Virus record (IMG/VR): IMGVR_UViG_3300032397_000035
Coordinates: 1 to 40,690 of that record
DNA length: 40,690 nt
Direction: 5' to 3' (one strand)
Origin: a virus
Position numbers and translations under genes: made by a program. Below, piece by piece: positions 1 through 40,690 of this stretch. The first letter of the stretch is position 1; each line of letters starts with the position of its first letter. The notes beneath the pieces are model-generated. The model made no database searches. It saw nothing but the letters and a program-made list of their open reading frames with translations, and had not been told where the DNA came from.

Positions 1-127
1 TTCATTTTGAACCTCCTAAATTTTCAATATTTTGTTTTATATGCGACAACTGAACATCCGCACCGTTTTGCATATATCTGAGATTTATTTTACCTTTATT
101 ATCAATTCCGGTGCTTTCAAATATTAA
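1..127. repeat. Terminal direct repeat, left copy
   Basis: The first 127 bases are identical to the last 127 (40564-40690). This suggests a circular or circularly permuted molecule cut at an assembly k-mer; 127 is a common assembler k value (inference). The same 127-mer is also present internally at 38594-38720, and the first mismatch falls at the next base (T at 128, C at 38721). The contig therefore ends exactly where two repeat copies diverge. Confidence 0.9.
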
Positions 128-154
128 TTTACTATCATCAATCTCCTTTATCAC
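2..154 (-). pseudogene. C-terminal remnant of an array gene
   Basis: This open frame encodes the same last 50 residues as the array gene at 38595-38873 (VIKEIDDSK ... NLGGSK). The N-terminal half and the shared EILKYYISKEDV block are missing. Upstream, the frame runs into sequence belonging to another gene's 5' end and meets a stop at 203-205. Only a GTG at 154 could start it and no ribosome binding site is evident. Probably a broken recombination product. Confidence 0.6.
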
Positions 155-206
155 ATCTTCCTTTATCCATTTTATATTTCTTTCCTTTTTCCATATAATT
201 TTTCAC
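138..206 (-). pseudogene. Truncated small ORF, hybrid of two array genes
   Basis: A GTG start behind a good GGAGGT site opens a 22-residue frame beginning like the leader ORF at 38125-38181 (MEKGKKYKMD). It then leaves that homology and stops out of frame inside the remnant of another array gene. The breakpoint lies near 148-150, at the end of the shared motif cacatcttccttt. Either a genuine recombination scar or a mis-assembly in repeats. Confidence 0.5.
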
Positions 207-221
207 TTTTCACCTCCATAA

Positions 222-449
222 TTACTCCTTAATTCTCGGCAATAATTGTAACTGAATTTTTCCATTTGCCCAGATATGTTCTAACCTAAAATTACTTCCT
301 TTAATTTCTATAATTTCTCCGATATTAAATATCTCGTTTTTTTCTACTGGTTTTGAAATTAAGGGATATAAAGATGGCTCTTTTCTGAATGCCTCATACA
401 GCATTTCTTTTGTCTTTGCCGTTATAAAAGTTCCATTTCCACTATCCAT
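222..449 (-). CDS. Small hypothetical protein of the repeat array
   Basis: 75 residues, function not recognised. It overlaps the preceding gene by one base (start 449, stop of the 449-667 gene) and ends in an IKE tail whose codons help form the next ribosome binding site, as at 39951-40133. The middle (NIGEIIEIKGSNFRLEHIWANGK) looks like a small beta-strand-rich domain. It lacks both recurring array modules, so it may be a cargo gene between cassettes. Confidence 0.7.
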   Translation of the reverse strand: MDSGNGTFITAKTKEMLYEAFRKEPSLYPLISKPVEKNEIFNIGEIIEIKGSNFRLEHIWANGKIQLQLLPRIKE

Positions 450-667
450 TATCTTCCACCTCCTAATTCTTCATCTAATCTCTTGCGGATATAATCAATA
501 CAGTCATTCCAATCAATATTTCCCTCAAATTTCTTTAAAGGCAACAATCCCTCTATCACTTTCCGTAGGTCGGATTTGACTGAACACTCCTTGCATTTCA
601 TATGAAACCGAGTGCACAAATTGCATACACTTTTAGACATAAACTCCTCAACCGTCATTCTAAACAT
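449..667 (-). CDS. Array family B protein (MTVEEF ... DYIRKRLDEELGG)
   Basis: 72 residues. The start MTVEEF and the end SDLRKVIEGLLPLKK ... DYIRKRLDEELGGG are shared with genes at 38178, 39531 and 40130. The centre is unique and cysteine-rich (CNLC, CKEC), possibly metal binding. The start is preceded by GGAGGTTCAA, which also encodes the GGS tail of the upstream gene. The 3' half is nearly identical in DNA to 38178-38390. Function unknown. Confidence 0.8.
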   Translation of the reverse strand: MFRMTVEEFMSKSVCNLCTRFHMKCKECSVKSDLRKVIEGLLPLKKFEGNIDWNDCIDYIRKRLDEELGGGR

Positions 668-932
668 TTGAACCTCCTAATTTTTCTATAACTTTCTTTA
701 AGTTTTCAAATATTATTTTATCGTGTAAGTGTAGAGCATTGTTTAATATTGACTTATCATATACTAATGTTTGGGAATATTCAGAAAATTCATCAATTAC
801 TTTCATCACATCTTTCTTTGAGATGTAATGCTTCTCGATTTCCTTTATAGCTTCTCTTAATGTGTATCCATCACTGCCTTGCGTAGCTTTATTTTCAAAA
901 CTTATTAAAATTTCTCCTAATTTATCATTCAT
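660..932 (-). CDS. Array family A protein (HYISKKDV module)
   Basis: 90 residues. The middle block IEKHYISKKDVMKVIDE matches the recurring family A module (EILKHYISKEDV) of genes at 37431, 38374, 38595 and 40347; N- and C-terminal parts are unrelated to them except for the final KLGGSN. It precedes a family B gene with coupled translation, as at 40347/40130 and 38374/38178. The start follows GAGGTGATAAA, formed by the end of the 929-1141 gene. Function unknown. Confidence 0.8.
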   Translation of the reverse strand: MNDKLGEILISFENKATQGSDGYTLREAIKEIEKHYISKKDVMKVIDEFSEYSQTLVYDKSILNNALHLHDKIIFENLKKVIEKLGGSNV

Positions 933-3327: not shown

Positions 3328-3717
3328 TTAGTCCTCATCATAAATAATTTCATTAGGTAAGGGAATTATAATTGACAATTCTTCTTGAGCATCTAACCTT
3401 ACTTTTTGCATAAAATCCTCAAACTCTACAGTTTTCAATTTTGAAGTTCCTTTACTGATTATTATTTCTGTGCCAAATATTATAGTTTTTTCAGTGAGAA
3501 ATAATGCTACATAATAATCGTGTATTCTTTGTCTGTCCTCACCTGTTTCATTTGCGATTAATTCAAAACAATACCACATATACCGATTTTGATTATTTGA
3601 CCTATTTTTTTTTATTGTCTCAATTTTTAATTTCCAACCATTTACGGTATAAGGGAGACGGTTTAAATACAAAAATAATTTTTCCTTATCTTCAGGATTT
3701 CGGATTACAAAGTCCAT
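3328..3717 (-). CDS. NinB/Orf-like recombination protein
   Basis: 129 residues. The core RSNNQNRYMWYCFELIANETGED ... IHDYYVALFL ... KGTSKLKTVEFEDFMQKVRLDAQEELSIIIPLP matches the NinB (lambda Orf) layout: RSxxQN, then TSKLxxxEFxxF before a C-terminal helix. Orf binds single-stranded DNA and helps load annealing proteins. Here it sits directly after a RecB-type nuclease and a putative annealing protein, which supports the call. Assigned by recognition of motifs only. Confidence 0.7.
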   Translation of the reverse strand: MDFVIRNPEDKEKLFLYLNRLPYTVNGWKLKIETIKKNRSNNQNRYMWYCFELIANETGEDRQRIHDYYVALFLTEKTIIFGTEIIISKGTSKLKTVEFEDFMQKVRLDAQEELSIIIPLPNEIIYDED

Positions 3718-4476
3718 TTACTTCTCCTTTGATTTTAAATAATTATAAATTTGTAAACATGGTTTTATAATGTTTTCTAATGATTCAATTACCATTTCAT
3801 TTGTTACTGGCACGAGATTATAAGCGATTTTATCTTTTGCTAATATAACAACATAACCTCTTTTTAATCCCAATCCCAAAATGTAACTTGATAATTGCCA
3901 TATCATTTCAGGATACAATGGCGGTTTATCAAGTTCAACATGCCCTCTTTTTATGTTATCTGATATACATTTCCCTGTTTTCCAGTCAAGACAAATCTCC
4001 TCATCATTTTCCATAACTGGAGCGTCTGCCATTCCAGAAATATTATATTCGTCATTATTGATAATTACTTCGGATTTATTTATATATCTAAATTGCGGAT
4101 TTTCACGCATAAACAAAACCCACGACTGGACTGTCATCTGGACATCTGAAGGGTATTGACTTTCTATCCCGTCAATATTTTTCGGGTCTGTTATATAAAG
4201 TTCAATAAGTTTATGAAAATCCGTCCCAATATCTTTTGCTTTCTGGAATTTTTCTGTTTTCCACTCTGATACTAATTTATCAAAATCGTCTTTAGACATT
4301 ATTTCTATTGATTCTAATGCGTGGGCATCACCCCGAATACTTTCCATTACCGCATTATAAACTTTTTCTGCTAATTCTTCAATAAGATTTTTCAGCCACC
4401 CTATTATTGCAGGTTTATTCAGAACTCCCAGAAAGTTTGACGGACTCGGATATTTATATTTACTTGGATTTCTCAT
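3718..4476 (-). CDS. PD-(D/E)XK nuclease, RecB/Cas4-type exonuclease
   Basis: 252 residues. Motifs of the family appear in order: GTDFHKLIE with H88, GMAD with D151, CLDWKTGK with D164 and K166, and WQLSSYI (193-199) as the QxxxY helix. Such nucleases resect DNA ends in phage recombination. The gene follows the putative annealing protein and precedes the NinB-like gene, forming an exonuclease-annealase set. No Cys cluster is evident, so an iron-sulfur Cas4 is less likely. Four conserved residues present, so probably active. Confidence 0.85.
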   Translation of the reverse strand: MRNPSKYKYPSPSNFLGVLNKPAIIGWLKNLIEELAEKVYNAVMESIRGDAHALESIEIMSKDDFDKLVSEWKTEKFQKAKDIGTDFHKLIELYITDPKNIDGIESQYPSDVQMTVQSWVLFMRENPQFRYINKSEVIINNDEYNISGMADAPVMENDEEICLDWKTGKCISDNIKRGHVELDKPPLYPEMIWQLSSYILGLGLKRGYVVILAKDKIAYNLVPVTNEMVIESLENIIKPCLQIYNYLKSKEK

Positions 4477-4486
4477 ATTTTGCCTC

Positions 4487-5407
4487 CTATCCTATTAACT
4501 TGCCTTCGCATAATTTCAAAAAATGTGCCAGGTCTTTTTGCATAATCATACTCATTTTTAATTCTATTTCGGCCCCTAGATTATAGACAGTCCTGATTTC
4601 AGCATTTAACACTTTCGGTGGTATTTTATTTGTCTTCATTAAATCTTTTAATAATTCACCCTCTTTCCTTGTAATATATTCACTATCAGGTTCAATAGCA
4701 TCATTTTCATCTGGTTTAAGCCCTTTTTCCTTTGTTTTTTCTTTATCCTGTGCGTTTTCCTGCAACTTTTCCTGATTTTCCGTATCTTTATTCGGTTCGG
4801 CTGGATGACACCAACCCGTTCCTGCTGGTTTTAATGCCAAATCGGGAATTTTAACCGTAGAAGTCGCCTTTTGAGGTTCGGCAGTATTTTCCTTTTCAAA
4901 TGTCATTTCTTCCGCAGGGGTTGGTTGGTATCCGGCTAATACCATAACCCAACTTAATGCAATTCTAAACGCCTTACTGACCGCCCTGGTCTCTGACATT
5001 GACCGCAGGGCGTATTCTTCATTTCCCTTTTTGCTATATTCCCAAGAGGCACATTCACTCTGGGCCCGGCTAACTAAATCCCCTTTGATATTCCTGACCT
5101 CGCAGTCGGAAACATATTTGACGCCCCTATCTATCCGCTCCTCTTTGACTTCAATTATCTGAGGAAATAGTCCGAGTAAAGCCCCCATCGTAGTCCACCC
5201 CTCACACCATACATATTTTTTACCCTTTATAATAGTAAACAACTTCTGCTTTTCTATAATGTCGCTTACCGCCTTTGCCACATTAGACGCCTTTTCTACT
5301 ATCCGGGTATAGTCATCAGTTCCGAATAATGAAACCGGTCTAATCTCCGGCTGAATAACCGCCACTTCCTGCTTTTTCGGTCTCCCTTTTTTCTTTACTT
5401 CTTCCAT
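4487..5407 (-). CDS. Putative single-strand annealing / recombination protein
   Basis: 306 residues. The N-terminus is basic (KKKGRPKKQ). Residues about 60-170 carry the stretches YVWCEGWTTMGALLG, AQSECASWE, YALRSMSETRAVSKAFR and MVLAGYQPTPAEEM, typical of a widespread phage family placed next to exonucleases. I infer an annealing role from context; a Rad52-like fold is possible but not shown here. The C-terminal third is charged and low complexity. First gene behind an attenuated promoter; start preceded by GGAGGTAAATAAA. Confidence 0.7.
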   Translation of the reverse strand: MEEVKKKGRPKKQEVAVIQPEIRPVSLFGTDDYTRIVEKASNVAKAVSDIIEKQKLFTIIKGKKYVWCEGWTTMGALLGLFPQIIEVKEERIDRGVKYVSDCEVRNIKGDLVSRAQSECASWEYSKKGNEEYALRSMSETRAVSKAFRIALSWVMVLAGYQPTPAEEMTFEKENTAEPQKATSTVKIPDLALKPAGTGWCHPAEPNKDTENQEKLQENAQDKEKTKEKGLKPDENDAIEPDSEYITRKEGELLKDLMKTNKIPPKVLNAEIRTVYNLGAEIELKMSMIMQKDLAHFLKLCEGKLIG

Positions 5408-5598: not shown

Positions 5599-5618
5599 AT
5601 TTTTCTTTCTCATTAGTA

Positions 5619-5646
5619 ATTATAGCACGGATTTTCAAAATGTCAA
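5619..5646 (-). promoter_or_regulatory. Promoter P-rec (TTGACA / TGC TATAAT, 16-bp spacer)
   Basis: Consensus -35 TTGACA (5641-5646), 16-bp spacer ending in TGC, -10 TATAAT (5619-5624). Transcription should start near 5612. An inverted repeat, TTTCAAAAT (5633-5641) and ATTTTGAAA (5652-5660), brackets the -35 box and could be an operator. Drives the recombination operon. Confidence 0.85.
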
Positions 5647-5694
5647 GAACTATTTTGAAATATTTTTTTTCTCTCGTCGTGAAATTATTGCTTT

Positions 5695-6290
5695 TCATTT
5701 AAACATATCCCCTTTTAGAAAATTTAATCTTGCCTGAATAATTTTTACATACTCCGGGTCTTTTTCTATGCCAATAAAAGAAAATCCCAAATTCTGAGCT
5801 GCAAATAAAGTGCTACCACTCCCAGCAAACATATCCAGCACAATTCCTTTTGGCGGAGTAATTAGTTTTATAAGATATTCCATAAGGGACAAACTTTTTA
5901 CCGTGGGATGGTTATTCCTCTGCATTATTTTTATATAAGGGTCTTTTAAATTTCCGATGGAACGCCCCAAAGTATTTTTAATACCACCTTCTTTTTTCGG
6001 TAATTCCTCACATCCGGCATTACGCTCAAACTTTGACGGCTTGGCACAGTAGAAAAAGCGGGAGGCAGAGCCGGAGTATGGTGCAATATTATTGTTTCCC
6101 TCGCCTCTATCATTATTTCGGACAGCCATTTAATCCAGTTATCCCGACCGCCTTTGTCATCGTCCCATGCCTGACTCATAAATGAAATACCACAAGGGGG
6201 GTCGGCAACAATACTATCAACCGAATTCTCTGGAATTGTTTTTAGTATTTCCTTTGAGTCACCGCATATTATCCTGTTCAGGTTATCCAT
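5695..6290 (-). pseudogene. DNA methyltransferase remnant (internal deletion plus frameshift)
   Basis: The first frame (6290 leftward) has the start of a phage N6A/N4C-type methyltransferase: IICGDS, then DPPCGISFM in place of DPPYG. After about residue 55 it leaves the family. The end of the family continues in another frame, open from 6129 to 5695: GSASRFFYCAKPSK, NNHPTVKSLSLMEYLIKL, then the SAM-binding DMFAGSGSTLFAA and FSFIGIEKD. The middle, normally well over 100 residues, is absent. Probably inactive unless the two pieces assemble. Confidence 0.8.
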
Positions 6291-6582
6291 ATATCTTTTT
6301 CCTGTTTTTCATTTCATCCCGTATTTCTTTTCGCTTTGCATTTAACTTACGCATTTTTTCAAATAGTTTTGAATATGCTTTTTGAATAGTGATGTTTAAT
6401 GAATATTTTGCAAAAATTTTTTCTCTCTTGAGTATAGGACTCAAATAAGATATTTCCCTATCAAGTTTCCTTAATTTATACCACAATTTAGATAATGTCA
6501 GGGAAGTGGGACTCGAACCCACACCGGCAGGCCGTCGCCTCTTGTTCTGACCACTTAAACTATTCCCTGATAAATTATCCAT
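6283..6582 (-). CDS. Hypothetical basic protein whose frame crosses a tRNA-like element
   Basis: A 99-codon frame with AAGGAC before its ATG. Residues 1-30 are simply the translation of the tRNA-like sequence (VGSSPTSLT is typical of a read-through T-arm). The rest (LWYKLRKLDREISYL ... KLNAKRKEIRDEMKNRKK) is basic and helical and could be a real gene starting at a TTG at 6486. The stop overlaps the start region of the methyltransferase remnant. The true start is unresolved. Confidence 0.45.
   Translation of the reverse strand: MDNLSGNSLSGQNKRRRPAGVGSSPTSLTLSKLWYKLRKLDREISYLSPILKREKIFAKYSLNITIQKAYSKLFEKMRKLNAKRKEIRDEMKNRKKIYG
6498..6570 (-). tRNA. tRNA-like element with aberrant anticodon arm
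   Basis: On the minus strand, CAGGGAA pairs with TTCCCTG (acceptor). A D-arm follows, GTTT (6557-6560) with GAAC (6544-6547) enclosing a GG-containing loop. The T-arm is canonical: GTGGG, TTCGAGT, CCCAC (6522-6506). The anticodon region instead forms AGGC-GACG-GCCT (6540-6529), a 4-nt loop with no U33 or seven-base loop. No CCA is encoded. About 72 nt, slightly short. Likely a degenerate tRNA or a tRNA mimic. Confidence 0.65.
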
Positions 6583-9334: not shown

Positions 9335-9362
9335 AAAATCAAACCTACCTTTCTAATATGTA

Positions 9363-9390
9363 ATTATAGCACTGGATAGCAAAAAGTCAA
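9363..9390 (-). promoter_or_regulatory. Promoter P-rep (TTGACT / TGC TATAAT, 16-bp spacer)
   Basis: -35 TTGACT (9385-9390), 16-bp spacer ending in TGC, -10 TATAAT (9363-9368). It overlaps the stop codon of the upstream gene. Transcription should start near 9356 and read into leader RNA 2 and the replication genes. Confidence 0.85.
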
Positions 9391-9569
9391 GGTTTATTTT
9401 TTATTTCCAGCCCCATAGCGTCAATGAGTTCAGGCGGGGTCTCAAGATAATTCGGGCAGGTATTCTCAGTATTCAGGATACATTTATTTCCCCTGTCAAT
9501 TCTGCCACATTCCAAATTCGGATAATTCGGTAAGTCGTCAATAAACCATTTACAATTTTCCTTTTTCAT
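9387..9569 (-). CDS. Small cysteine-containing protein
   Basis: 60 residues from the ATG at 9569, which overlaps the stop of the preceding gene (ATGA) and follows GGAGAT. The pattern CKWF ... LECG ... NKCIL ... CPNYLE gives four spaced cysteines, probably a small metal-binding fold. Function not recognised. Last gene before promoter P-rep. Confidence 0.65.
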   Translation of the reverse strand: MKKENCKWFIDDLPNYPNLECGRIDRGNKCILNTENTCPNYLETPPELIDAMGLEIKNKP

Positions 9570-30993: not shown

Positions 30994-32295
30994 TTAATTT
31001 GCCTTTTCTGCTATCACATTACCATTATCTACCTTTATTCTCCAAGTTTGCGTGGAATAACTTATATCAGGATATATCACACCTTTATTTACATCATTTA
31101 TTTCTATGTCATTATTTATTGTCTGCTTTGCAGTCCAAGTGCTACTTGAATTCAAAATATTTGCTGGAATAGTATCAAGTTTTGTTCCGTCAACGGAAAT
31201 ATCTCTGCCGTCAATTAAAATAGAATTTGATACTACAAAATCTTCTGTTAATATCGCCCTTATAGAAATTTCATTCCCTGCACCAAATTCACCTATTTCT
31301 ATGCTACCAGACGGAGTTCTTATTCTGTTCAGGGTAACTTTAATACCATCAGAACCATCGTCCTTTTCAATAATTGTTACCTCATTTCCTTCCGCATCGT
31401 GCATTTTTATTCTTGGAATTGCATAATTCAAAAGCAAATCATTAGTCATTGTTATATTCTGTGCATTAAGCGGACTCAAAACATTTATTGGAGATTTACC
31501 ATATAAACTTGATACATATACTTCATTAAAGTTTCCTACATCTGCTGTTATCGTTCCTACCGTCAGATTATATGTTTGTAAATGCGTAAAGGTTGAGTTT
31601 GAAACATCGTCAAGAGATATTCCACCACTACCACCCCCCAAAGTAGATGTTGAGGTTATAATTGTGCCATCGGGAAACACTAATTGTTTCACATTCTGGT
31701 CGGCTGTCCAAGTATTTGTTGAACTTAATAAAGTTGAAGGGTCTGCTCCGCCCCCGCCAAGTCCCGATGTTGAAACAAGAATAGTGCCATCGGAAAAGGT
31801 TATCGTGGAAACAAAAGTTCCCCCTATAATTGTTATACTGCTCCTCACTATCGCCCCGCCATCAACCGATAATTTATGTGTAGGTATTGTCACGGTTGTT
31901 GTGCTTATACTTATATTTCTATTTGTTGCAAAATTCATCCAATTTATAGAATTACCATCACAAATATATATTGTATTACTTGGCCCCATTATAAAAGGTG
32001 CTCTTATTGAATTAGCAGTTGATATATAATTACTGGAATGTATTGCACCATTCACATCTAAAGCATAAGTAGTATTTACCATCCCTATTCCAACTCTGCC
32101 ATTTGCAATTACAAAAGTAGAACCTCCGACGGAAAATTCACTACCCCGAACCGTTATTGAACTGGTCGTGGTTAGATTGCCAGTCATCGTGTCGCCTGAC
32201 TTTTTAACGAGCGTATCTGTATTTATACCACCAGAATTAAATCCCGCATAAAGTAAACTCGGAAATAAAATAATTAAAAATAATATATTTTTCAT
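30994..32295 (-). CDS. Secreted fibre-like protein with signal peptide
   Basis: 433 residues. The signal peptide MKNILFLIILFPSLLYA is followed by GFNSGG. The body holds LVKKSGDTMTGNLTT, a motif typical of tail fibres (GDTMTGxL), NGRVGIG...TYALDVNG, and two SS(T/N)TWTAxQ repeats. The mix of fibre motifs with a classical leader suggests an exported adhesin-like protein. Not like a standard tail-fibre gene, which lacks a leader. Second gene of the late operon. Confidence 0.7.
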   Translation of the reverse strand: MKNILFLIILFPSLLYAGFNSGGINTDTLVKKSGDTMTGNLTTTSSITVRGSEFSVGGSTFVIANGRVGIGMVNTTYALDVNGAIHSSNYISTANSIRAPFIMGPSNTIYICDGNSINWMNFATNRNISISTTTVTIPTHKLSVDGGAIVRSSITIIGGTFVSTITFSDGTILVSTSGLGGGGADPSTLLSSTNTWTADQNVKQLVFPDGTIITSTSTLGGGSGGISLDDVSNSTFTHLQTYNLTVGTITADVGNFNEVYVSSLYGKSPINVLSPLNAQNITMTNDLLLNYAIPRIKMHDAEGNEVTIIEKDDGSDGIKVTLNRIRTPSGSIEIGEFGAGNEISIRAILTEDFVVSNSILIDGRDISVDGTKLDTIPANILNSSSTWTAKQTINNDIEINDVNKGVIYPDISYSTQTWRIKVDNGNVIAEKAN

Positions 32296-32299
32296 AAAA

Positions 32300-33997
32300 T
32301 CACCTCTTGCCAGAAATCAAATAGTAAATTGTTGAACCGCTCGGAATTGTAAGTGAAATAGTAAATGTTCCTGTCGTAGGTCGGCATAATGTCTCTGTTA
32401 GTGTATGTCCAGCCCGTAAATATCCTGTCCCAGAGCCATAATTATCGGTAAATGAAAGTTCGTTTGTTGTAGTGTCAGAAGTAAAATCAAGAGACCAAGA
32501 CAAAGCATTAGAAAGTGATATATCACCGCTTACCGATGTTTTGCCTTTAATATTATTATAAGTGCTTCCGTCTAAATCGGAATTGATTACTTTTTTCAAG
32601 TCCGCAACCTGTGAAGCAGTTAAGGTAAAAGTTCCTGCCGGGACATTGAATTGAGTGTTTGAAATTGAACCGCTGATATTAGCATTTATAGACCCGGAAG
32701 TTATGAACACATTTTCATAACCGCCAGAAGGAAAATTACTCGTGTCAATTATTTTCTGAACCACTACGGTAGAACCTTCAATTGAAATATCCGAAATCTG
32801 ATTCAGCACATAAATTGAACTCCCAGTGACATCAAAAGCGGGATTTGTTATTGTAATAGTTCCAGAGGTTATTACAGTATCTTTTGTATTTACATTTATC
32901 GTTGTTGAACCTATTGATAAAGTCGGGAAATTGCTTGTATCTAAAATCTTATTTATAATAATAGAACTTCCTGTCACATTATATATTGAAGGATTATTGT
33001 TAATGGAAATAGAACCGCTTGTTATAACTACATCCTTATTATTCGTTTTTGCGTTTATTTCCGATATTGCTTTGTCTTTTATATCGGTAAATGTCCAGAC
33101 CGAACATAAAGCAGGGACAAAACTTGTTTGATAATTTGGCACATACGAACCTTTTGTCAATCTGTCATCACCTATTTCAATAATCAAATCCGCTCCCACT
33201 ATTGAAAAGGTCGGGGCCCAAGTTCTTAATAATCTTCCGTGAATATCTACTTCAAATACCAAAAATGATTTATAATTTATCGTCTGAATAGTTATTAACG
33301 GAATACTCCAACGGGCGTAATATGTCCCTGAACTTAAAAAGACAAACGGGTCTATTGATAGCATTTTACCTGAATAACCTATCCCGTTTAGTTGTGTCTG
33401 TATTATTTCCTGATTTGCTTTAATTGAATAGTCAGAGGGAAAATTAGAAATTGCGAACTGCGGATTAGCAATCGTAATTGTAGACCCCGTAGTATTATAA
33501 ATTCCAGATGGTAAAGCATAAAAAGAAGTATTACCTATCACTTCGCCTTTTTTGAAATAATCAAATGGTATATTATTTACCGTAATAGTAGAACCTGTTA
33601 TATCAACAGCGGAAGGAAAATTGTCTATACTTATTGTTCCTGATGCAACTATAATAGTGTCTGGGAAATTACCTACATTTACAGTCCCGCTTGTTATTAC
33701 AATATCCTTTGTATTGCAGAGATACATTTTCCCAGCAAGGTCACTATTCGGATAATCGGAAGGAAAGTTTACTACCGACATCGTAGAATTGATAACATAA
33801 ACCCACGGCGTATTATTTATACTTGCATTGACAGTCGCAGTCCCCAGAGTTATCGGCACTGCCGGGCCGACTACTTTTACCGCCCTCGCATTCAGAGCCG
33901 GGTCAAATGTCCGGTTATCAATCTGGGCAGGCGTATAATCAGCATATAATTTTGAGATTAGTAAACTTCCGACGATAAAAGATAGGATTTTTTTCAT
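32300..33997 (-). CDS. Secreted beta-repeat protein with signal peptide
   Basis: 565 residues from the ATG at 33997 (GAGGTG upstream; an ATG at 34015 is also in frame). Leader MKKILSFIVGSLLISKLYA, then about 150-450 made of short repeats (VITSGTISI, NFPS, DITGSTITVNNI) likely forming a beta-solenoid or fibre shaft, and a compact C-terminal domain (DFTSDTTTNELSFTDNYGSGTG). First gene after the late promoter. Could be a fibre subunit or a phage-coded host surface protein. Confidence 0.7.
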   Translation of the reverse strand: MKKILSFIVGSLLISKLYADYTPAQIDNRTFDPALNARAVKVVGPAVPITLGTATVNASINNTPWVYVINSTMSVVNFPSDYPNSDLAGKMYLCNTKDIVITSGTVNVGNFPDTIIVASGTISIDNFPSAVDITGSTITVNNIPFDYFKKGEVIGNTSFYALPSGIYNTTGSTITIANPQFAISNFPSDYSIKANQEIIQTQLNGIGYSGKMLSIDPFVFLSSGTYYARWSIPLITIQTINYKSFLVFEVDIHGRLLRTWAPTFSIVGADLIIEIGDDRLTKGSYVPNYQTSFVPALCSVWTFTDIKDKAISEINAKTNNKDVVITSGSISINNNPSIYNVTGSSIIINKILDTSNFPTLSIGSTTINVNTKDTVITSGTITITNPAFDVTGSSIYVLNQISDISIEGSTVVVQKIIDTSNFPSGGYENVFITSGSINANISGSISNTQFNVPAGTFTLTASQVADLKKVINSDLDGSTYNNIKGKTSVSGDISLSNALSWSLDFTSDTTTNELSFTDNYGSGTGYLRAGHTLTETLCRPTTGTFTISLTIPSGSTIYYLISGKR

Positions 33998-34024
33998 AGA
34001 TATTTCACCTCGCATAATATAAAC

Positions 34025-34131: not shown

Positions 34132-34410
34132 TTAAAATAATTCTTTTTGATTTTCTTTTTTAATATTTTCTATTCTCAATATTTTACCTAAATATAATTC
34201 ATAATATTGATTTGTTTTTTCTACTTTCTCTAATTCAATAATAAATCTGGGTCTATTATTACCATATCCGTTTATAAATAATATGGTTTCATATTTTTTT
34301 TTATAAAATTTCTTCTCATAATATTTTGATAATTTTCTATATTCAATTAATTTTTGTTTATTTAATATCTCATAAAAATATTTTTTATAAAGTGTTAATC
34401 TTAATTGCAT
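34132..34410 (-). CDS. ASCH (PUA-like) domain protein
   Basis: 92 residues from the ATG at 34410 (an in-frame GTG at 34422 also exists). MQLRLTLYKKYFYEILNKQKLIEYRKLSKYYEKKF, then ILFINGYGNNRPRFIIELEKVE and YYELYLGKILRIEN follow the ASCH layout (K..EYR; .F.NGY...P...; Y.I.LG.I). ASCH/PUA folds bind RNA or modified nucleotides. It follows an ABC-GNAT gene and a ParB-like gene, hinting at recognition of modified DNA or RNA; inference. Confidence 0.75.
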   Translation of the reverse strand: MQLRLTLYKKYFYEILNKQKLIEYRKLSKYYEKKFYKKKYETILFINGYGNNRPRFIIELEKVEKTNQYYELYLGKILRIENIKKENQKELF

Positions 34411-35465
34411 ATATATTCCCACGAAGTAGTATATCTTTCAGTCGCAACTGTTTTACTCGTAGGAAAACTTTTAGATGTTCTCTTATTCCTTCCTTGTCTT
34501 TTCAATATCCATTTTTTACTTTTATTGAAATAATTTATAAGTGAAGGTGTTGAAGTCGTAATACTAAATCTATTACCTTTTTTTATAAATAAATTCGCCA
34601 CAAATTCTAATAATCTGCAACCTATTCCTATACCTTGATAATCAGGTAATACAATCAATCTGGTGCATCTTTGCATATTTTTAATTATCGGATGAGGAAA
34701 ATATAAAACTCCACAAAAAGCAACAGGAATATTATTTATATATCCTATAAATTGTTTTGCCCCTCTATGTATTTCAGAATTCAAATAATGATACTTTTTA
34801 AATATATTCCACATTCCTTTTCTTTGATATATTTTGATTTTAATTTTAGGACGCTGAAGTTCCCCCCGGACATATTTATATGTCATTTCATTAGTATCAA
34901 ATATCCAATCAGGTTCTAACCAGTTCAATATATCATAATGACAAGAAACTGCAACAAATTTCTTATTCATTCTTTTTATTACTTTTGATACTGCATAACT
35001 TCCTATTTTTGCCACATTTCTATCTATCACAGAAGTAAATTCATCAAAAACAATTATCTTTTTATTTTCAAGTAATGCCCTTGCAAGATTTACTCTCATC
35101 TTTTCACCTTCGCTTAAAACCGAATAACTTTTAAGCCAAGATGGAACAGAAGAAAATCCCACAGAATTTAATATTTTACATATATCTTTTATAGAAATTT
35201 CAGAGGGAAAATTATCTAAAATTGATTTTTCATTATAGTAATAATTTCCGATATAATAATCTTTAAATAATTCTTTTGCTATTGTTGTTTTTCCAGTTCC
35301 GCTTGCCCCAACAATACAACCGATATTCCAGTCCTTATCCAAATCAATACTTCCTATAAAATTTTCTCTAATATGTTCTGTTTGTAAATTATATTTTCCC
35401 ATTATTGATTCAACTCTAAAAGTTTTTTCCGCTATACTCTCTTTTATGATATTAAAATTCTGCAT
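34401..35465 (-). CDS. ABC-type ATPase fused to a GNAT acetyltransferase-like domain
   Basis: 354 residues. N-terminal half: Walker A GASGTGKTT (53-61), signature LSEGEK (117-122), Walker B IIVFDEF (137-143), switch H176 (SCHYD). C-terminal half from about 205: WNIFKKYHYLNSEIHRGAKQFIGYIN, then LPDYQGIGIGCRLLEF (273-288), the acetyl-CoA-binding motif of GNAT enzymes. No membrane segment, so not a transporter. The GNAT part may be related to Mom-type DNA-modifying enzymes (phage Mu Mom has a GNAT-like fold); this is a hypothesis. Coupled to ASCH and ParB-like genes. Confidence 0.85.
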   Translation of the reverse strand: MQNFNIIKESIAEKTFRVESIMGKYNLQTEHIRENFIGSIDLDKDWNIGCIVGASGTGKTTIAKELFKDYYIGNYYYNEKSILDNFPSEISIKDICKILNSVGFSSVPSWLKSYSVLSEGEKMRVNLARALLENKKIIVFDEFTSVIDRNVAKIGSYAVSKVIKRMNKKFVAVSCHYDILNWLEPDWIFDTNEMTYKYVRGELQRPKIKIKIYQRKGMWNIFKKYHYLNSEIHRGAKQFIGYINNIPVAFCGVLYFPHPIIKNMQRCTRLIVLPDYQGIGIGCRLLEFVANLFIKKGNRFSITTSTPSLINYFNKSKKWILKRQGRNKRTSKSFPTSKTVATERYTTSWEYICN

Positions 35466-35959
35466 TTATAACCCATTCCTTTTATTTTATTATATGTTTT
35501 TTCCTGTTCAATTTCGTCTTTACATTCTATTACAACTTCATATATTTCTTTCAGACATAATTCTTTATCTAATTTATCAAATAAAGAATTTTCGAATCCA
35601 ATATCTTTCAGCAAGTCCTCAGAAAAGTTTAATTTTAATAAGTCATAGTCCCATTCACCTGTATTGCGGTTTAATCTGCCGTTGAGTTCCTTTTCCTTTT
35701 CAATATCCGCTATATCCACGAAAACGCAGGGCACTTCCAAAATACCGAGTTCCTTACAAATTGATTTACGGAAATTCCCGCCGATTATTATTCCTTTCCG
35801 GGCTGGATTTTTATTTATTAGGAGCGGGTCAACGAAACCGAAACGCTTTATACTCTCGGTTAATTGAGCCGTTGCCTCAGGCGTCCATCGGCGTGGGTTA
35901 TATTTCGGGCTTTTCAATTCCGATACTTTGACATATTCAATCTTTATTTTATTTTTCAC
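35444..35959 (-). CDS. ParB-like nuclease/NTPase-domain protein
   Basis: 171 residues. KVSELKSPKYNPRRWTPEATAQLTESIKRFGFVDPLLIN and GGNFRKSICKELGILEVPCVFV are the ParB/Srx N-terminal domain (NPR; the GGHRR-like GGNFRK). The C-terminus (YEVVIECKDEIEQEKTYNKIKGMGYKCRIL) matches a small domain often attached to phage ParB-like proteins linked to DNA methyltransferases (recalled). No partner ParA is present. The gene overlaps the ABC-GNAT gene by 22 bases. Confidence 0.85.
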   Translation of the reverse strand: MKNKIKIEYVKVSELKSPKYNPRRWTPEATAQLTESIKRFGFVDPLLINKNPARKGIIIGGNFRKSICKELGILEVPCVFVDIADIEKEKELNGRLNRNTGEWDYDLLKLNFSEDLLKDIGFENSLFDKLDKELCLKEIYEVVIECKDEIEQEKTYNKIKGMGYKCRILIS

Positions 35960-36698: not shown

Positions 36699-36835
36699 TT
36701 TTTTATATACCTCCATATAGTCCTCTCACTCAATTTATATTTTTTAGCCAAATAATAAACCGCCGTAGAACATTTATACTTGCCTTTTACCATTATAGCA
36801 TATTCCTTTTTTATTTCAAGTTTCCGTTTAATCAT
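36695..36835 (-). CDS. Small helix-turn-helix protein
   Basis: 46 residues: KRKLEIKKEYAIMVKGKYKCSTAVYYLAKKYKLSERTIWRYIKK. The second half has the spacing of a helix-turn-helix (STAVYYLAKKYKLSERTIWRYI). Similar small proteins occur in Mu-like phages and may act as transcription regulators. A promoter-like sequence (36792-36819) lies within the gene. Candidate activator of the late promoter, unproven. Confidence 0.65.
   Translation of the reverse strand: MIKRKLEIKKEYAIMVKGKYKCSTAVYYLAKKYKLSERTIWRYIKK
36792..36819 (-). promoter_or_regulatory. Possible internal promoter (TTGAAA / TGC TATAAT, 16-bp spacer)
   Basis: TTGAAA (36814-36819), 16-bp spacer ending in TGC, TATAAT (36792-36797), the same design as the other four promoters. 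It sits inside the HTH gene and would transcribe the downstream 36698-34132 module. As it is within coding DNA, chance cannot be excluded. Confidence 0.5.
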
Positions 36836-36876
36836 CTACTTTTCTTTACTGGTTTTTTGAATTTCATTTTACCCAT
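36832..36876 (-). CDS. Basic micropeptide ORF
   Basis: 14 codons (MGKMKFKKPVKKSR) behind a strong GAGGGGGG site, overlapping the HTH start by 4 bases (ATGA). It may only couple translation from the nuclease gene to the HTH gene. Confidence 0.35.
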   Translation of the reverse strand: MGKMKFKKPVKKSR

Positions 36877-36892
36877 CCCCCCTCAATTCCGA

Positions 36893-37207
36893 TTATGAAG
36901 TCCATAACTGCTTTATGTCCTTTGCTTCCTTTACCACAATATAGGTTATACCCAATTTATAAGCGATTTCAGAGCATTTAACCTGCGCCGGTGATAGTTT
37001 ACCCTCGCTTGACTTACATTCAAGGAATATGGTTTTATTTGGCAGAAAGACAATGAAGTCAGGGCTCCCGGATTTCCCGAAGTGCATAAAACCGCCGCTG
37101 GCAGTCCTGACTGCACCAGAAGAATTATGGATAAAATATAACTTGCCTTGATTTTCATATAATTGCAGATATTCCCTTACTGCCCTGATTACATACTTTT
37201 CTTTCAT
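36893..37207 (-). CDS. VRR-NUC domain nuclease
   Basis: 104 residues. SGAVRTASGGFMHFGKSGSPDFIVFLPNKTIFLECKSSEGKLSPAQ contains the VRR-NUC PD-(D/E)XK core with D50, E63 and K65. The family includes phage Holliday-junction or structure-specific nucleases. The domain is stand-alone, as in many phages. Lies downstream of the small-gene array and before the HTH gene. Confidence 0.88.
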   Translation of the reverse strand: MKEKYVIRAVREYLQLYENQGKLYFIHNSSGAVRTASGGFMHFGKSGSPDFIVFLPNKTIFLECKSSEGKLSPAQVKCSEIAYKLGITYIVVKEAKDIKQLWTS

Positions 37208-37210
37208 TTT

Positions 37211-37438
37211 TTATGTCTTTTCCTGTTTAATTTTTTCTAATAGTAACTTCTCAAAATCAGCATTGCAATCCGTATCAATACTTTTTATTATACTTTCAAA
37301 ATAACTCCACATATCTTCCTTTGAGATATAATACTTTTTATAATACAAACAAGATTGCAAATATTTACATCTATCTTGCACACAATCATATCCATATACT
37401 GGACAATCATTTTTTAAACTTTTTTTTATTTTATCCAT
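37211..37438 (-). CDS. Array family A-related protein (YYISKEDM)
   Basis: 75 residues. The block KKYYISKEDMWSYFE matches the family A module. The N-terminus is cysteine-rich (CPVYGYDCVQDRCKYLQSC) and unrelated to other members. It ends EKIKQEKT without the LGGS tail, and the array stops here. The start follows GGGAGGTTCAA, the tail codons of the preceding gene. Function unknown. Confidence 0.75.
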   Translation of the reverse strand: MDKIKKSLKNDCPVYGYDCVQDRCKYLQSCLYYKKYYISKEDMWSYFESIIKSIDTDCNADFEKLLLEKIKQEKT

Positions 37439-37652
37439 TTGAACCTCCCAATTTTCCTATGGTTTGTTTTAATCTATCTTTAATCTGACAAAAACAATTA
37501 TTATCCAAAATTCTATGCACATCTTCCTTCGCAATGTAGTGTTTCAGGATTTCTTCTTCTCCTTCAACCATTGCTTCCAAATGTGCCCTTACCCCATTGC
37601 CATCACTATAATTTTGTATTATGATATGCAATATTTCTCTTAACTTGCTCAT
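37431..37652 (-). CDS. Array family A protein (HYIAKEDV)
   Basis: 73 residues: MSKLREILHIIIQN ... EGEEEILKHYIAKEDVHRILDN ... RLKQTIGKLGGSNG. It carries the recurring block with one change (A for S), and the LGGSN tail that doubles as the next gene's ribosome binding site. Start MSKLxxIL is shared with the 38595 gene; the rest of the N- and C-termini is distinct. Confidence 0.78.
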   Translation of the reverse strand: MSKLREILHIIIQNYSDGNGVRAHLEAMVEGEEEILKHYIAKEDVHRILDNNCFCQIKDRLKQTIGKLGGSNG

Positions 37653-37921
37653 TTCTTTGCCTCCAGTTTATTCCCGAACACATAATTCTGCATCGCCAAA
37701 CAAACATAATTTATCCTATCCTGCAATACCCTACCACTTTCTAATTTATCAATCCAAATTACAACATCACTCTCTTGCTCTTGATATTCTGTATCATAAG
37801 TATTAAACACAGAATTAATTTCTCGGGGTTCTCCAATATCCCTCAATAATATTCCCTGTCTATTACCCTGTGTTACGCTGGCAATCAAAATTCTACCTTC
37901 AGATAAAATAACTTCTTTCAT
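37649..37921 (-). CDS. Hypothetical protein of the array
   Basis: 90 residues from the ATG at 37921, coupled by ATGA and preceded by GAGGAGGCAAAG. Beta-rich start (EVILSEGRILIASVTQGNRQGILLRDIGEP) and a helical end (DRINYVCLAMQNYVF). Not related to the A or B modules. No recognised family. Confidence 0.65.
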   Translation of the reverse strand: MKEVILSEGRILIASVTQGNRQGILLRDIGEPREINSVFNTYDTEYQEQESDVVIWIDKLESGRVLQDRINYVCLAMQNYVFGNKLEAKK

Positions 37922-38124
37922 TTCTTTGCCTCCTCTCTTGCCTTCATACATTCGGGGCAAGGTTTTGTATTATTTTTATTTACCCTTATAACTTTTCCAA
38001 ATATTTTACAAAATGCCACCGGATGAAATACAAATACACTTGGACTGAGAAAAGAACATAGCACTGTCCCATTTTTTTCGCAATACTTTTTTTCAGGGAT
38101 TTCAACTTCAATTTTTATTTTCAT
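37918..38124 (-). CDS. Cysteine-containing hypothetical protein of the array
   Basis: 68 residues from the ATG at 38124, behind GGAGGTGATAAA. KIKIEVEIPEKKYCEKNG, a central hydrophobic stretch and CPECMKAREEAKK give a possible C...C...CxxC metal site. An in-frame upstream ORF from GTG 38181 (MEKGKKYKMD) is duplicated at 138-206. Confidence 0.65.
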   Translation of the reverse strand: MKIKIEVEIPEKKYCEKNGTVLCSFLSPSVFVFHPVAFCKIFGKVIRVNKNNTKPCPECMKAREEAKK

Positions 38125-38177
38125 TTTATCACCTCCATTATCCATTTTATATTTCTTTCCTTTTTCCATATAATTTT

Positions 38178-38390
38178 TCACTTTCCACCTCCCAATTCTT
38201 CATCTAACCTCTTGCGGATATAATCAATACAGTCATTCCAATCAATATTTCCCTCAAATTTCTTTAAAGGCAACAATCCCTCTATCACTTTCCGCAGGTC
38301 GGATTTTAAGAGGGGGTCTACTTTTACCGTCTCATCACCACTCATTTCTCCAGACCATTTATATAAAAACTCCTCAACCGACATCTTCAT
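38178..38390 (-). CDS. Array family B protein (MSVEEF)
   Basis: 70 residues from the ATG at 38390, preceded by GGGAGGTTCAA. Conserved start MSVEEF and conserved end SDLRKVIEGLLPLKK ... DYIRKRLDEELGG, DNA-level near-identity with 449-667 in the 3' half. The variable middle here (LYKWSGEMSGDETVKVDPLL) has no cysteines, unlike its paralogues. Follows a family A gene. Confidence 0.8.
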   Translation of the reverse strand: MKMSVEEFLYKWSGEMSGDETVKVDPLLKSDLRKVIEGLLPLKKFEGNIDWNDCIDYIRKRLDEELGGGK

Positions 38391-38598
38391 TTGAACCTCC
38401 CACCTTTTCAAGATTTTCTTTTAGTTTCAATAATACCATAGGTTCTATACCCTGCACGGATTCTAATAATATTTTTACATCTTCCTTTGAGATGTAATGT
38501 TTCAGGATTTCGTTTTCCGCTTTTAATAATCTATCTATTGTTCTTGGGCTTATAATAAGATTAAATTCACATTCCAATATTTCTTTTATTCTGTTCAT
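38374..38598 (-). CDS. Array family A protein (MNRIKEIL ... HYISKEDV)
   Basis: 74 residues. The first 42 residues are nearly the same as in the gene at 40347 (MNRIKEIL, NLIISPRTIDRLLKAE, EILKHYISKEDV); the C-terminal 30 are unrelated. That sharp change just after the ISKEDV block shows module exchange at this point. The tail VGGSNEDVG extends past the usual stop into the next gene. Confidence 0.8.
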   Translation of the reverse strand: MNRIKEILECEFNLIISPRTIDRLLKAENEILKHYISKEDVKILLESVQGIEPMVLLKLKENLEKVGGSNEDVG

Positions 38599-38720
38599 TT
38601 TGAACCTCCTAAATTTTCAATATTTTGTTTTATATGCGACAACTGAACATCCGCACCGTTTTGCATATATCTGAGATTTATTTTACCTTTATTATCAATT
38701 CCGGTGCTTTCAAATATTAA
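38576..38720. repeat. Internal copy of the terminal repeat
   Basis: 145 bp identical to 40546-40690, of which the last 127 bp are also identical to 1-127. The copy spans the junction between two array genes (38595-38873 and 38374-38598). It makes the array a place where homologous recombination, or an assembly error, can add or remove about 1.97 kb. Confidence 0.9.
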
Positions 38721-38873
38721 CTTACTATCATCAATCTCCTTTATCACATCTTCCTTTGAGATGTAGTATTTCAGGATTTCCAATTCTGTTCCTGCCCATA
38801 ACCCTAAATTATAACCATTCGTTTTCTCTAAACCATCTTTTAATTTTTGCAATATGTTTTGTAACTTACTCAT
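38595..38873 (-). CDS. Array family A protein (YYISKEDV)
   Basis: 92 residues from the ATG at 38873, with GGAGGTG upstream. MSKLQNILQKLKDGLEK ... EILKYYISKEDVIKEIDDSK ... HIKQNIENLGGSK. Its last 50 residues recur as the remnant at 2-154. Stop overlaps the next start (ATGA). Function unknown. Confidence 0.8.
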   Translation of the reverse strand: MSKLQNILQKLKDGLEKTNGYNLGLWAGTELEILKYYISKEDVIKEIDDSKLIFESTGIDNKGKINLRYMQNGADVQLSHIKQNIENLGGSK

Positions 38874-38884
38874 TTTTTCACCTC

Positions 38885-39142
38885 CTATTTCAGCCACTTG
38901 TCTTTGCTTTCTTTAAATGATTTTTCTAAATCGATTGCCTTATAAACTGTAATATTGTTAAGATATAATATTTTATTAAATTGTTTCCAGTCAATCTCCA
39001 CTTTCCTGTATCCGGCGGAATAGATAATTTCAGACAATTCATTTACATATCTACATTTAGCATATTTCCTATTACAATTATTAACTACTGCATTTATTGA
39101 AGAACATTTATCACAAATTATCTTTTTCATTTCTTCTTGCAT
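38885..39142 (-). CDS. Cysteine-rich hypothetical protein of the array
   Basis: 85 residues. CDKCSSINAVVNNCNRKYAKC gives four cysteines that could bind zinc; then a helix pair (ELSEIIYSAGYRKVEIDWKQFNKIL). AAGGAGATAAT precedes the start. It lacks the A or B modules but lies between such genes. Confidence 0.65.
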   Translation of the reverse strand: MQEEMKKIICDKCSSINAVVNNCNRKYAKCRYVNELSEIIYSAGYRKVEIDWKQFNKILYLNNITVYKAIDLEKSFKESKDKWLK

Positions 39143-39378
39143 ATTATCTCCTTACATGCAATACTTATATTTTTATACCAACATTTCACATCACAACTAT
39201 CTTTCTTTTTATGTGGAACTGAATGAGGACAAGAACATAATTCCGTTTTTTCTTCACAAATATATAATATCTGTTTTTTCTTCACTTTCCGCAGGCTGGA
39301 TTTTAATTCTTCTCGGACAGAATGATTCGCCCCGTTGCCCCATTCATTAAAAAACTCCTCAACCGTCATTTTATCCAT
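39127..39378 (-). CDS. Divergent array family B protein, C-terminus replaced
   Basis: 83 residues. Starts MDKMTVEEFFNEW and reaches a decayed SSLRKV, but then a cysteine-rich tail (CSCPHSVPHKKKDSCDVKCWYKN) replaces the usual DYIRKRLDEELGG. Either a cassette whose 3' module was swapped or a truncated fusion. Overlaps the next gene by 16 bases. Confidence 0.7.
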   Translation of the reverse strand: MDKMTVEEFFNEWGNGANHSVREELKSSLRKVKKKQILYICEEKTELCSCPHSVPHKKKDSCDVKCWYKNISIACKEIICKKK

Positions 39379-39538
39379 TTGAACCTCCTAATTCGTCTTC
39401 AAGTTCCTCTAATTTCTCTTGTTCTTGTATAAAAATACTAAATGGTTTTATATCATCAAGGCGTTCTTTTATTGTTTCTATTTCTAATTGTAAAATATTT
39501 ATTTTGTTTATTAACTCCTCAACTGTCATCTTATCCAT
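39371..39538 (-). CDS. Short array family B-start protein, coiled coil
   Basis: 55 residues: MDKMTVEELINKINILQLEIETIKERLDDIKPF ... LEELEDELGGSNG. The MTVEEL start and ELGGSNG end match the array's standard ends, but the middle is a simple coiled coil with Ile/Leu heptads. This shows that unrelated sequence can lie between the same ends. The start follows GGAGGTTCAA. Confidence 0.7.
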   Translation of the reverse strand: MDKMTVEELINKINILQLEIETIKERLDDIKPFSIFIQEQEKLEELEDELGGSNG

Positions 39539-39755
39539 TTGAACCTCCTAATTCTTCATCTAATCTCTTGCGGATATAATCAATAACATCCTTTGCAGAA
39601 TATACACCCTTGTCAGGCAATAATCCCTCTATCACTTTCCGCAGGTCGGATTTTAACAATGGAATACAAGATGAACATTCTGCAACATTACAGTCTATGG
39701 TTTTATTCCCACAATGATAATTTTCAGCAAACTCCTCAACTGTCATCTCATCCAT
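39531..39755 (-). CDS. Array family B protein (DKGVYSAKD variant)
   Basis: 74 residues: MDEMTVEEF, variable CGNKTIDCNVAECSSC, then KSDLRKVIEGLLPDKGVYSAKDVIDYIRKRLDEELGGSNG. Shares the DKGVYSAKD ending with 40130-40354, while 449 and 38178 carry LKKFEGNIDWNDC. The cysteine pattern differs from its paralogues. Function unknown. Confidence 0.8.
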   Translation of the reverse strand: MDEMTVEEFAENYHCGNKTIDCNVAECSSCIPLLKSDLRKVIEGLLPDKGVYSAKDVIDYIRKRLDEELGGSNG

Positions 39756-39764
39756 TTGAACCTC

Positions 39765-39935
39765 CTAATTTTTCTTTAATTCTTCAATCGTAATTTTGAC
39801 ATTTTTTTTAATAAAAGGTCTTAAAAAGTCATCAATAAAAATACCATCATCGGAAGGTTTTGGAATTATATAAATAGGTGACTTCTTATATTCCCCAATA
39901 AAACCACTCCAAACTTTTCCTTTAATTATTTTCAC
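39765..39935 (-). CDS. Small hypothetical cargo protein of the array
   Basis: 56 residues from a GTG start (GGAGGTGGAAA upstream): KIIKGKVWSGFIGEYKKSPIYIIPKPSDDGIFIDDFLRPFIKK. No A or B module, mainly beta strands. Follows the same junction (GGAGTAATTATGGAGGTG) found before 138-206. Confidence 0.6.
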   Translation of the reverse strand: MKIIKGKVWSGFIGEYKKSPIYIIPKPSDDGIFIDDFLRPFIKKNVKITIEELKKN

Positions 39936-39950
39936 TTTCCACCTCCATAA

Positions 39951-40133
39951 TTACTCCTTATTTTTTCTTATCTTATCTTTTTCTTTTGAAAGATTAAATA
40001 ATAACGAATGAAATTCTTCTCCATCCACTATATCATCCTCATTATTATCTTTGATTTCGTCTTCGTTCATACTTTCTTTTGCCATATCTCCGGCATTATC
40101 TATCATCCAATCTCTAAAAGCATATCTATTCAC
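39951..40133 (-). CDS. Acidic hypothetical cargo protein of the array
   Basis: 60 residues from a GTG start. Basic start (NRYAFRDWMIDNAGDMAKES) and an acidic centre (NEDEIKDNNEDDIVDGEE). Its end NKE and following stop form the repeated junction with the next gene. Strongly acidic small phage proteins sometimes mimic DNA, but nothing more specific supports that here. Confidence 0.6.
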   Translation of the reverse strand: MNRYAFRDWMIDNAGDMAKESMNEDEIKDNNEDDIVDGEEFHSLLFNLSKEKDKIRKNKE

Positions 40134-40354
40134 TTTCCACCTCCCAATTCTTCATCTAATCTCTTGCGGATATAATCAATTACATCTTTTGCAGAATATA
40201 CACCCTTGTCAGGCAATAATCCTTCTATCACTTTCCGCAGGTCGGATTTCATATTAACATAACAAGATTTTTTATATACGCCTTTACAAGAATTTACACC
40301 ACATTTTGGACAGATATAAGTTCCTATAAACTCCTCAACCGTAATCTTATCCAT
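40130..40354 (-). CDS. Array family B protein (zinc-finger-like centre)
   Basis: 74 residues. MDKITVEEF, then a centre CPKCGVNSCKGVYKKSC with a CPxCG knuckle, then KSDLRKVIEGLLPDKGVYSAKDVIDYIRKRLDEELGGGK. Nearly identical 3' half to 39531-39755, unrelated centre. Preceded by a family A gene, as usual. Confidence 0.8.
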   Translation of the reverse strand: MDKITVEEFIGTYICPKCGVNSCKGVYKKSCYVNMKSDLRKVIEGLLPDKGVYSAKDVIDYIRKRLDEELGGGK

Positions 40355-40568
40355 TTGAACCTCCTAATTTGTATATGAAATCCAATAATTCTCTAACAAC
40401 CATTTCGTGTGTATATCCAAACCTTTTTTTATCAATTATTTTCATCACATCTTCCTTTGAGATGTAATATTTCAGGATTTCTTTTTCCGCTTTTAATAAT
40501 CTATCTATTGTTCTTGGGCTTATAATAAGATTAAATTCATATTTTAATATTTCTTTTATTCTGTTCAT
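40347..40568 (-). CDS. Array family A protein (MNRIKEIL ... YYISKEDV)
   Basis: 73 residues. N-terminal 42 residues nearly match 38374-38598; after KYYISKEDV the sequence (MKIIDKKRFGYTHEMVVRELLDFIYKLGGSNG) is different. The start overlaps the stop of the gene that wraps around the window end (2-154 remnant if circular). The ribosome binding site lies in the repeated 127-mer. Confidence 0.8.
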   Translation of the reverse strand: MNRIKEILKYEFNLIISPRTIDRLLKAEKEILKYYISKEDVMKIIDKKRFGYTHEMVVRELLDFIYKLGGSNG

Positions 40569-40690
40569 TTTGAACCTCCTAAATTTTCAATATTTTGTTT
40601 TATATGCGACAACTGAACATCCGCACCGTTTTGCATATATCTGAGATTTATTTTACCTTTATTATCAATTCCGGTGCTTTCAAATATTAA
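40564..40690. repeat. Terminal direct repeat, right copy
   Basis: Exact copy of bases 1-127. Identity with the internal copy at 38594-38720 extends further left, so 40546-40690 matches 38576-38720 over 145 bp. The unit carries the 3' end of one small gene (LGGSK tail), the ribosome binding site and the start of the next gene (MNRIKEIL). Confidence 0.9.

What the first reader, a model, noticed from the sequence alone, without database searches (positions are those of the whole stretch)
37211..40690. Array of modular small genes with two recurring families, continuing across the junction to base 932
About 20 genes of 50-100 codons lie in tandem. Family A shares only a central block EILK(H/Y)YISKEDV (37211, 37431, 38374, 38595, 40347, 660). 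Family B shares a start M(T/S)VEEF and an end SDLRKVIEGLLP ... DYIRKRLDEELGG (449, 38178, 39531, 40130; partial at 39127, 39371). A is followed by B three times (932/667, 38598/38390, 40568/40354). Parts outside the blocks differ completely between copies, so cassettes appear to be shuffled. This could be a diversification system for small early proteins, for example inhibitors of host defences. I recognise no described family; novelty is inference.
Basis: partly seen in the sequence, partly recalled or inferred. Interest (0 to 1): 0.8.

Follow-up and report, generated by a model that had tools for sequence, protein, structure and literature searches.

The report
Mosaic array of small phage genes
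A phage carries about twenty tiny early genes in a row that look like pieces of a few protein types cut and rejoined at short, reading-frame-preserving DNA joints, which is an unusually dense case of phage gene shuffling with no relatives found in the databases searched.

Summary
On the minus strand, about 19 coupled genes (37211 to the end, then 1-1141 if circular) include six A-type and six B-type copies where stated. 33 of 35 internal DNA repeats lie in the array; nine comparison phages have 0-6 in any 5 kb. Shared DNA forms four block types: a gene junction (10 copies, 0.1 expected), the A core and two B blocks. Blocks keep identical codons beyond chance; sequence between them is mostly at chance level. 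Three A-B units pair differently in different segments, so recombination is needed, not duplication alone. 40 of 43 repeats keep frame. The shared 'LGGSN' ends are the next gene's Shine-Dalgarno. No reverse transcriptase, integrase or resolvase was found, and no relatives of A or B in the phage, plasmid, viral-contig and sampled Bacillota data searched. Best reading: an early accessory operon remodelled by recombination at short diverged repeats. Protein function is unknown; a host-takeover or counter-defence role is inference. New variant of a known kind.

The parts
660..932 (-). A1, A-type gene (90 aa); core codons at 807-842
449..667 (-). B1, B-type gene (72 aa) with Cys-rich variable N-part CNLCTRFHMKCKEC; B blocks 454-577
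222..449 (-). C1, unrelated small gene (75 aa) coupled to B1
2..217 (-). Chimeric remnant next to the contig end: start of a G-type gene (MKNYMEKGKKYKMD) joined out of frame to the tail of an A-type gene at AAGGAAGATGTGATAAAG
40347..40568 (-). A2, A-type gene (73 aa); core 40446-40481; N-part 95% identical to A4
40130..40354 (-). B2, B-type gene (74 aa), Cys-rich variable N-part
39951..40133 (-). D2, unrelated small gene (GTG start) coupled to B2
39765..39935 (-). E2, unrelated small gene; its end reads the junction block in another frame (AAT TAG)
39531..39755 (-). B3, B-type gene (74 aa), Cys-rich variable N-part; blocks 39543-39656
39371..39538 (-). B4, chimeric B gene: B start and junction end around an unrelated middle
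39127..39378 (-). B5, chimeric B gene: B start and SSLRKV block, then unrelated Cys-rich C-part
38885..39142 (-). F, unrelated Cys-containing small gene
38595..38873 (-). A3, A-type gene (ATG at 38871-38873); core 38745-38780; its tail lies in the 145-bp exact repeat
38374..38598 (-). A4, A-type gene (74 aa); core 38476-38511
38178..38387 (-). B6, B-type gene without Cys cluster; blocks 38183-38309, 97.6% identical to B1 over 124 nt
37918..38181 (-). G, unrelated small gene whose start recurs in the chimera at 147-217
37649..37921 (-). H, unrelated small gene
37431..37652 (-). A5, A-type gene (73 aa); core 37518-37553
37211..37438 (-). A6, chimeric A gene: Cys-rich N-part joined to the A core (37310-37336), no LGGSN end
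38576..38720 (.). 145-bp exact repeat, also at 40546-40690; contains the 127-bp contig-end repeat (1-127)
3328..5407 (-). Candidate recombination module upstream on the same strand: 4487-5407 unknown (phrog_19042), 3718-4476 exonuclease, 3328-3717 NinB/Orf mediator
   Evidence: annealing role of 4487-5407 is inference from position

Best explanation
An early accessory operon of small genes has grown by duplication and been remodelled by recombination between short, partly diverged repeats. Joints fall in four block types: the gene junction (end of one gene, Shine-Dalgarno, start of the next), the A core, and two B blocks. Because a block usually sits in the same frame in both partners, most products stay in frame and keep a strong ribosome site. 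Shown: the blocks, the frame, codon-level identity, conflicting segment histories. Inferred: that the phage's own exonuclease/Orf-type recombination genes, perhaps with the 4487-5407 product as annealing protein, do the joining during replication; and that the proteins are small host-interaction factors (takeover or counter-defence) for which variety is useful.
For: Repeats concentrated in the array. Block boundaries sharp and recurrent. Same-codon use among same-residue pairs above all 2000 redraws for every block: A core 111/137 (mean 74, max 102), B SDLRKV 91/102 (40, 66), B YIRKRL 77/84 (38, 54), B start 59/65 (34, 54). Three A-B units: A N-part groups units 2 and 4 (95% v 66-67%), B middle groups 1 and 4 (100% v 54%, chance 51%), the short A post-core groups 1 and 2 (89%; only 18 nt, so weak). 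40 of 43 matches in frame. Strong SD in 18 of 19 array genes against 9 of 37 uncurated others. NinB/Orf and exonuclease present; Rad52-like recombinases and orf were shown to drive phage mosaicism on short diverged sequences (PMC3945230).
Against: One genome only; no relative shows the shuffling happening. The annealing protein is not identified: 4487-5407 matched no recombinase family. Gene conversion or selection on the blocks could add to their identity. The chimera at 2-217 has almost no homology at its joint, so not all joints are homologous. No function evidence for A or B; models were poor (mean pLDDT 60-62).
Confidence: 0.62

Rival explanations
1. Ordinary paralogue family: A and B duplicated long ago, and only functionally essential helices stayed similar while the rest drifted beyond recognition.
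For: Blocks are conserved as protein and in frame; synonymous difference in the A core is not negligible (pS 0.32-0.46).
Against: Block codons are shared far above codon-usage expectation, including rare codons, beside chance-level flanks. The junction block links unrelated genes and is read in two frames. Segment groupings conflict.
Confidence: 0.17
2. A dedicated diversification locus: conserved blocks are maintained as recombination sites and a phage-encoded activity shuffles modules within each phage population to vary inhibitors of host defences.
For: Blocks are in frame and conserved as DNA; the A core and first B block have GC3 of 0.33-0.71 against 0.30 in the genome's large genes; boundaries recur.
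Against: No RT, tyrosine or serine recombinase found; only short imperfect inverted repeats; no population data; general phage recombination suffices.
Confidence: 0.13
3. Assembly artefact: a short-read assembler joined variants at repeats.
For: The contig ends in a 127-bp repeat that also occurs internally; 127 looks like an assembler k-mer.
Against: All other exact repeats are 86 bp or shorter, below that presumed k-mer; only the adjacency at the 145-bp repeat is ambiguous, and either resolution keeps the same gene pieces.
Confidence: 0.08

Closest known systems
Start-Associated Sequences (SAS/ESAS) of cluster K mycobacteriophages (PMC3203893)
   Same: A repeated short sequence immediately upstream of the start codons of many different genes, tied to translation initiation.
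   Different: Sequence unrelated (13-bp SAS consensus not above chance here). Here the repeat also covers the end of the upstream gene and first codons of the next, and there are additional intragenic blocks.
Rad52-like/Red recombinase-driven phage mosaicism (PMC3945230)
   Same: Exchange at short, diverged homology; Orf (NinB) contributes; exchanges inside genes described.
   Different: There exchange is between phage and prophage genomes; here the repeats are within one genome, which that paper says phages usually lack.
Domain mosaicism of phage proteins (PMC10684548)
   Same: Otherwise unrelated proteins share a fragment.
   Different: Described mainly for receptor-binding proteins, endolysins and polymerases across phages; here 55-91 aa proteins within one operon.
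SPO1 host-takeover module (PMC6873191)
   Same: Cluster of 26 genes in a phage that remodels its host.
   Different: Only the abstract start was seen; recurring modular blocks are not mentioned there, and sequence relation was not tested.

Membership tests
Diversity-generating retroelement | Reverse transcriptase in or near the locus | tested here: not met
   PF00078 search of the window gave no match
Shufflon / site-specific cassette system | Tyrosine or serine site-specific recombinase | tested here: not met
   PF00589 and PF00239 gave no match
Shufflon / site-specific cassette system | Inverted repeats flanking cassettes | tested here: not met
   Only short imperfect inverted pairs
Start-Associated Sequence (SAS) | Repeated asymmetric sequence just upstream of many start codons | tested here: met
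   TTRGGAGGTTCAAATG, 10 copies, one orientation, 0.1 expected
Start-Associated Sequence (SAS) | Consensus GGGATAGGAGCCC | tested here: not met
   3 matches with 3 mismatches, 4 expected
Rad52-like recombinase mosaicism | Phage-encoded Rad52-like annealing protein | tested here: inconclusive
   4487-5407 lies beside exonuclease and NinB/Orf but matched no such family
Rad52-like recombinase mosaicism | Orf/NinB recombination mediator | tested here: met
   3328-3717, phrog_72, E 7.4e-17
Known A or B protein family | Match above curated cut-off in Pfam or NCBIfam, a convincing PHROGs match, or a PDB relative | tested here: not met
   Only weak matches: Pfam and NCBIfam all below their cut-offs, PHROGs E 0.08 or worse for A/B copies, PDB E 0.017 or worse
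Host-takeover / counter-defence proteins | Early expression and an effect on host targets | not testable with these tools
   Array lies on the strand of the replication genes with no terminator-like site in 36800-40690; expression unknown

The most novel reading that the evidence does not exclude
A protein-based combinatorial system without reverse transcriptase: the phage keeps in-frame DNA blocks as recombination joints so that its own recombination machinery continually rebuilds small early proteins from constant helices and swappable, often Cys-rich, ends.
Probability: 0.15. Interest if true: 0.85.

Novelty: new variant of a known kind. Interest (0 to 1): 0.5.

Why it matters
Phage mosaicism is usually read from comparisons between genomes. 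Here one genome carries enough short, diverged, in-frame repeats to show intragenic module exchange by itself, in the class of small early genes whose origin is poorly understood. If the array is active, long reads of one phage stock would show new gene combinations directly.

Tried and rejected
Homologues of A/B by single-sequence and profile scans of viral contigs and genome contigs: none confirmed. The confirmation step is weak for short mosaic proteins, so the A core was also searched as a degenerate DNA pattern in viral contigs: 0. tblastn in phages and distant blastn in plasmids: none, except matches to wastewater contigs labelled Listeria phage, which hold no A/B gene and were dropped. 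398 genomes of one phylum (that of a Bacillota record) by A profile: 8 weak matches at about the expected chance level, inside long unrelated proteins. Ten records related by other genes: nothing significant. The 43-kb record with a 61% identical capsid protein (L012) lacks such repeats. Structure models too poor to search. Rfam: only a tRNA elsewhere. Annealing-protein identity of 4487-5407 could not be established. A DGR, a shufflon and an integron-like array were considered and rejected for lack of the enzyme.

Full report
What is there. The window is a 40,690-base virus record, a tailed phage with portal, capsid, tape-measure and terminase genes, and DnaB, O-like initiator, exonuclease and NinB/Orf genes. 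Its ends share a 127-bp repeat, so it is probably a circle of 40,563 bp. On the minus strand, between a DNA methyltransferase-like gene (1646-2242) and a nuclease gene (36893-37207), lie about 19 small array genes.

More than chance. All exact direct repeats of 30 nt or more are in the array or at the contig end. In a self-comparison, 33 of 35 matches fall in one 5-kb stretch; nine comparison phages have 0-6. The comparison set is small and was not chosen at random.

Anatomy. Coverage of each gene by these matches shows four recurrent blocks. (1) The junction: last ~25 nt of one gene, Shine-Dalgarno, start, first ~27 nt of the next. TTRGGAGGTTCAAATG occurs 10 times with up to two mismatches, all on the minus strand and all in the array; 0.1 is expected. 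The shared protein ends LGGSN(G) and LGGGK are translations of this ribosome site; E2 reads it in another frame. (2) The A core, EILK(H/Y)YISKEDV. (3) B block KSDLRKVIEGLLP. (4) B block DYIRKRLDEELGG. Genes B4, B5 and A6 are chimeras in which a block is joined to unrelated sequence.

Recombination rather than drift. In all four coding blocks tested, identical codons at identical residues exceed every one of 2000 redraws from this genome's codon use; several of the codons (ATC, CTG, TAC, CGC) are rare here. The stretches between blocks are mostly at the identity of shuffled sequence. Exceptions are longer shared runs: A2/A4 N-parts (95%) and B1/B6 C-parts (97.6% over 124 nt). The three A-B units group differently by segment: units 2 and 4 in the A N-part, 1 and 4 in the B middle, 1 and 2 in a short A segment. 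The first two are strong, the third rests on 18 nt. One duplication history does not give this. At 2-217 the start of a G-type gene is joined out of frame to an A tail, a joint that looks like an unselected by-product.

Frame and translation. 40 of 43 matches that can be scored keep the frame. 18 of 19 array genes have AGGAG or GGAGG upstream, against 9 of 37 other genes whose starts I did not curate. No terminator-like site was found in 36800-40690, and promoter-like sites there do not exceed chance.

Mechanism. No reverse transcriptase, integrase or resolvase was found, which argues against a retroelement, shufflon or integron-like system. Phage Rad52-like recombinases exchange short diverged sequences, orf contributes, and phages usually lack internal repeats (PMC3945230). 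This phage has exonuclease and Orf genes; whether 4487-5407 is the annealing protein is inference from position only.

Function. Neither A nor B matched a known family. The models are mostly helical but of low confidence. Many variable ends are Cys-rich (B1, B2, B3, B5, A6, also F), which may bind metal; this is read from sequence only. A role against the host is the usual guess for small early accessory genes, and is inference.

Novelty. The junction resembles SAS of cluster K mycobacteriophages in position and use but not in sequence (PMC3203893). Protein-fragment shuffling is known in phages (PMC10684548). What is unusual is the concentration: junction and intragenic in-frame blocks together in one array of 55-91 aa genes. 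I call it a new variant of a known kind.

Limits. Absence of A/B elsewhere holds only for the collections and sensitivities used. The link across the contig ends depends on one repeated 127-mer. The block definitions were chosen after seeing the alignments, so the codon test measures how alike the blocks are, not how likely such blocks are to be found.

Noticed in passing
34401-35959: ABC-type ATPase fused to a GNAT-like acetyltransferase domain, next to a ParB-like gene; Streptococcus, Lactococcus and Oenococcus phages carry similar genes near the terminase, often as separate ORFs. Possibly DNA modification.
   Followed up: partly
5605-5656 and 9349-9400: Two strong minus-strand promoter-like sites (12 of 12 and 11 of 12) lie in a 52-bp repeat, perhaps paired early promoters.
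   Followed up: no
30994-34015: Two large genes without family matches; 32300-34015 has a signal-peptide-like start and repeated short motifs around NFP and TSG, and GC skew is near zero at 32001-34000.
   Followed up: no
5695-6290: Overlapping ORFs; 5946-6290 matches only the N-terminal part of adenine DNA methyltransferases, so the gene may be split or frameshifted.
   Followed up: no
6498-6569: Rfam tRNA match on the minus strand, overlapping the 6283-6582 ORF.
   Followed up: no
1-127, 38594-38720, 40564-40690: The contig-end repeat is present a third time inside the array, so circular closure is likely but not proven.
   Followed up: yes
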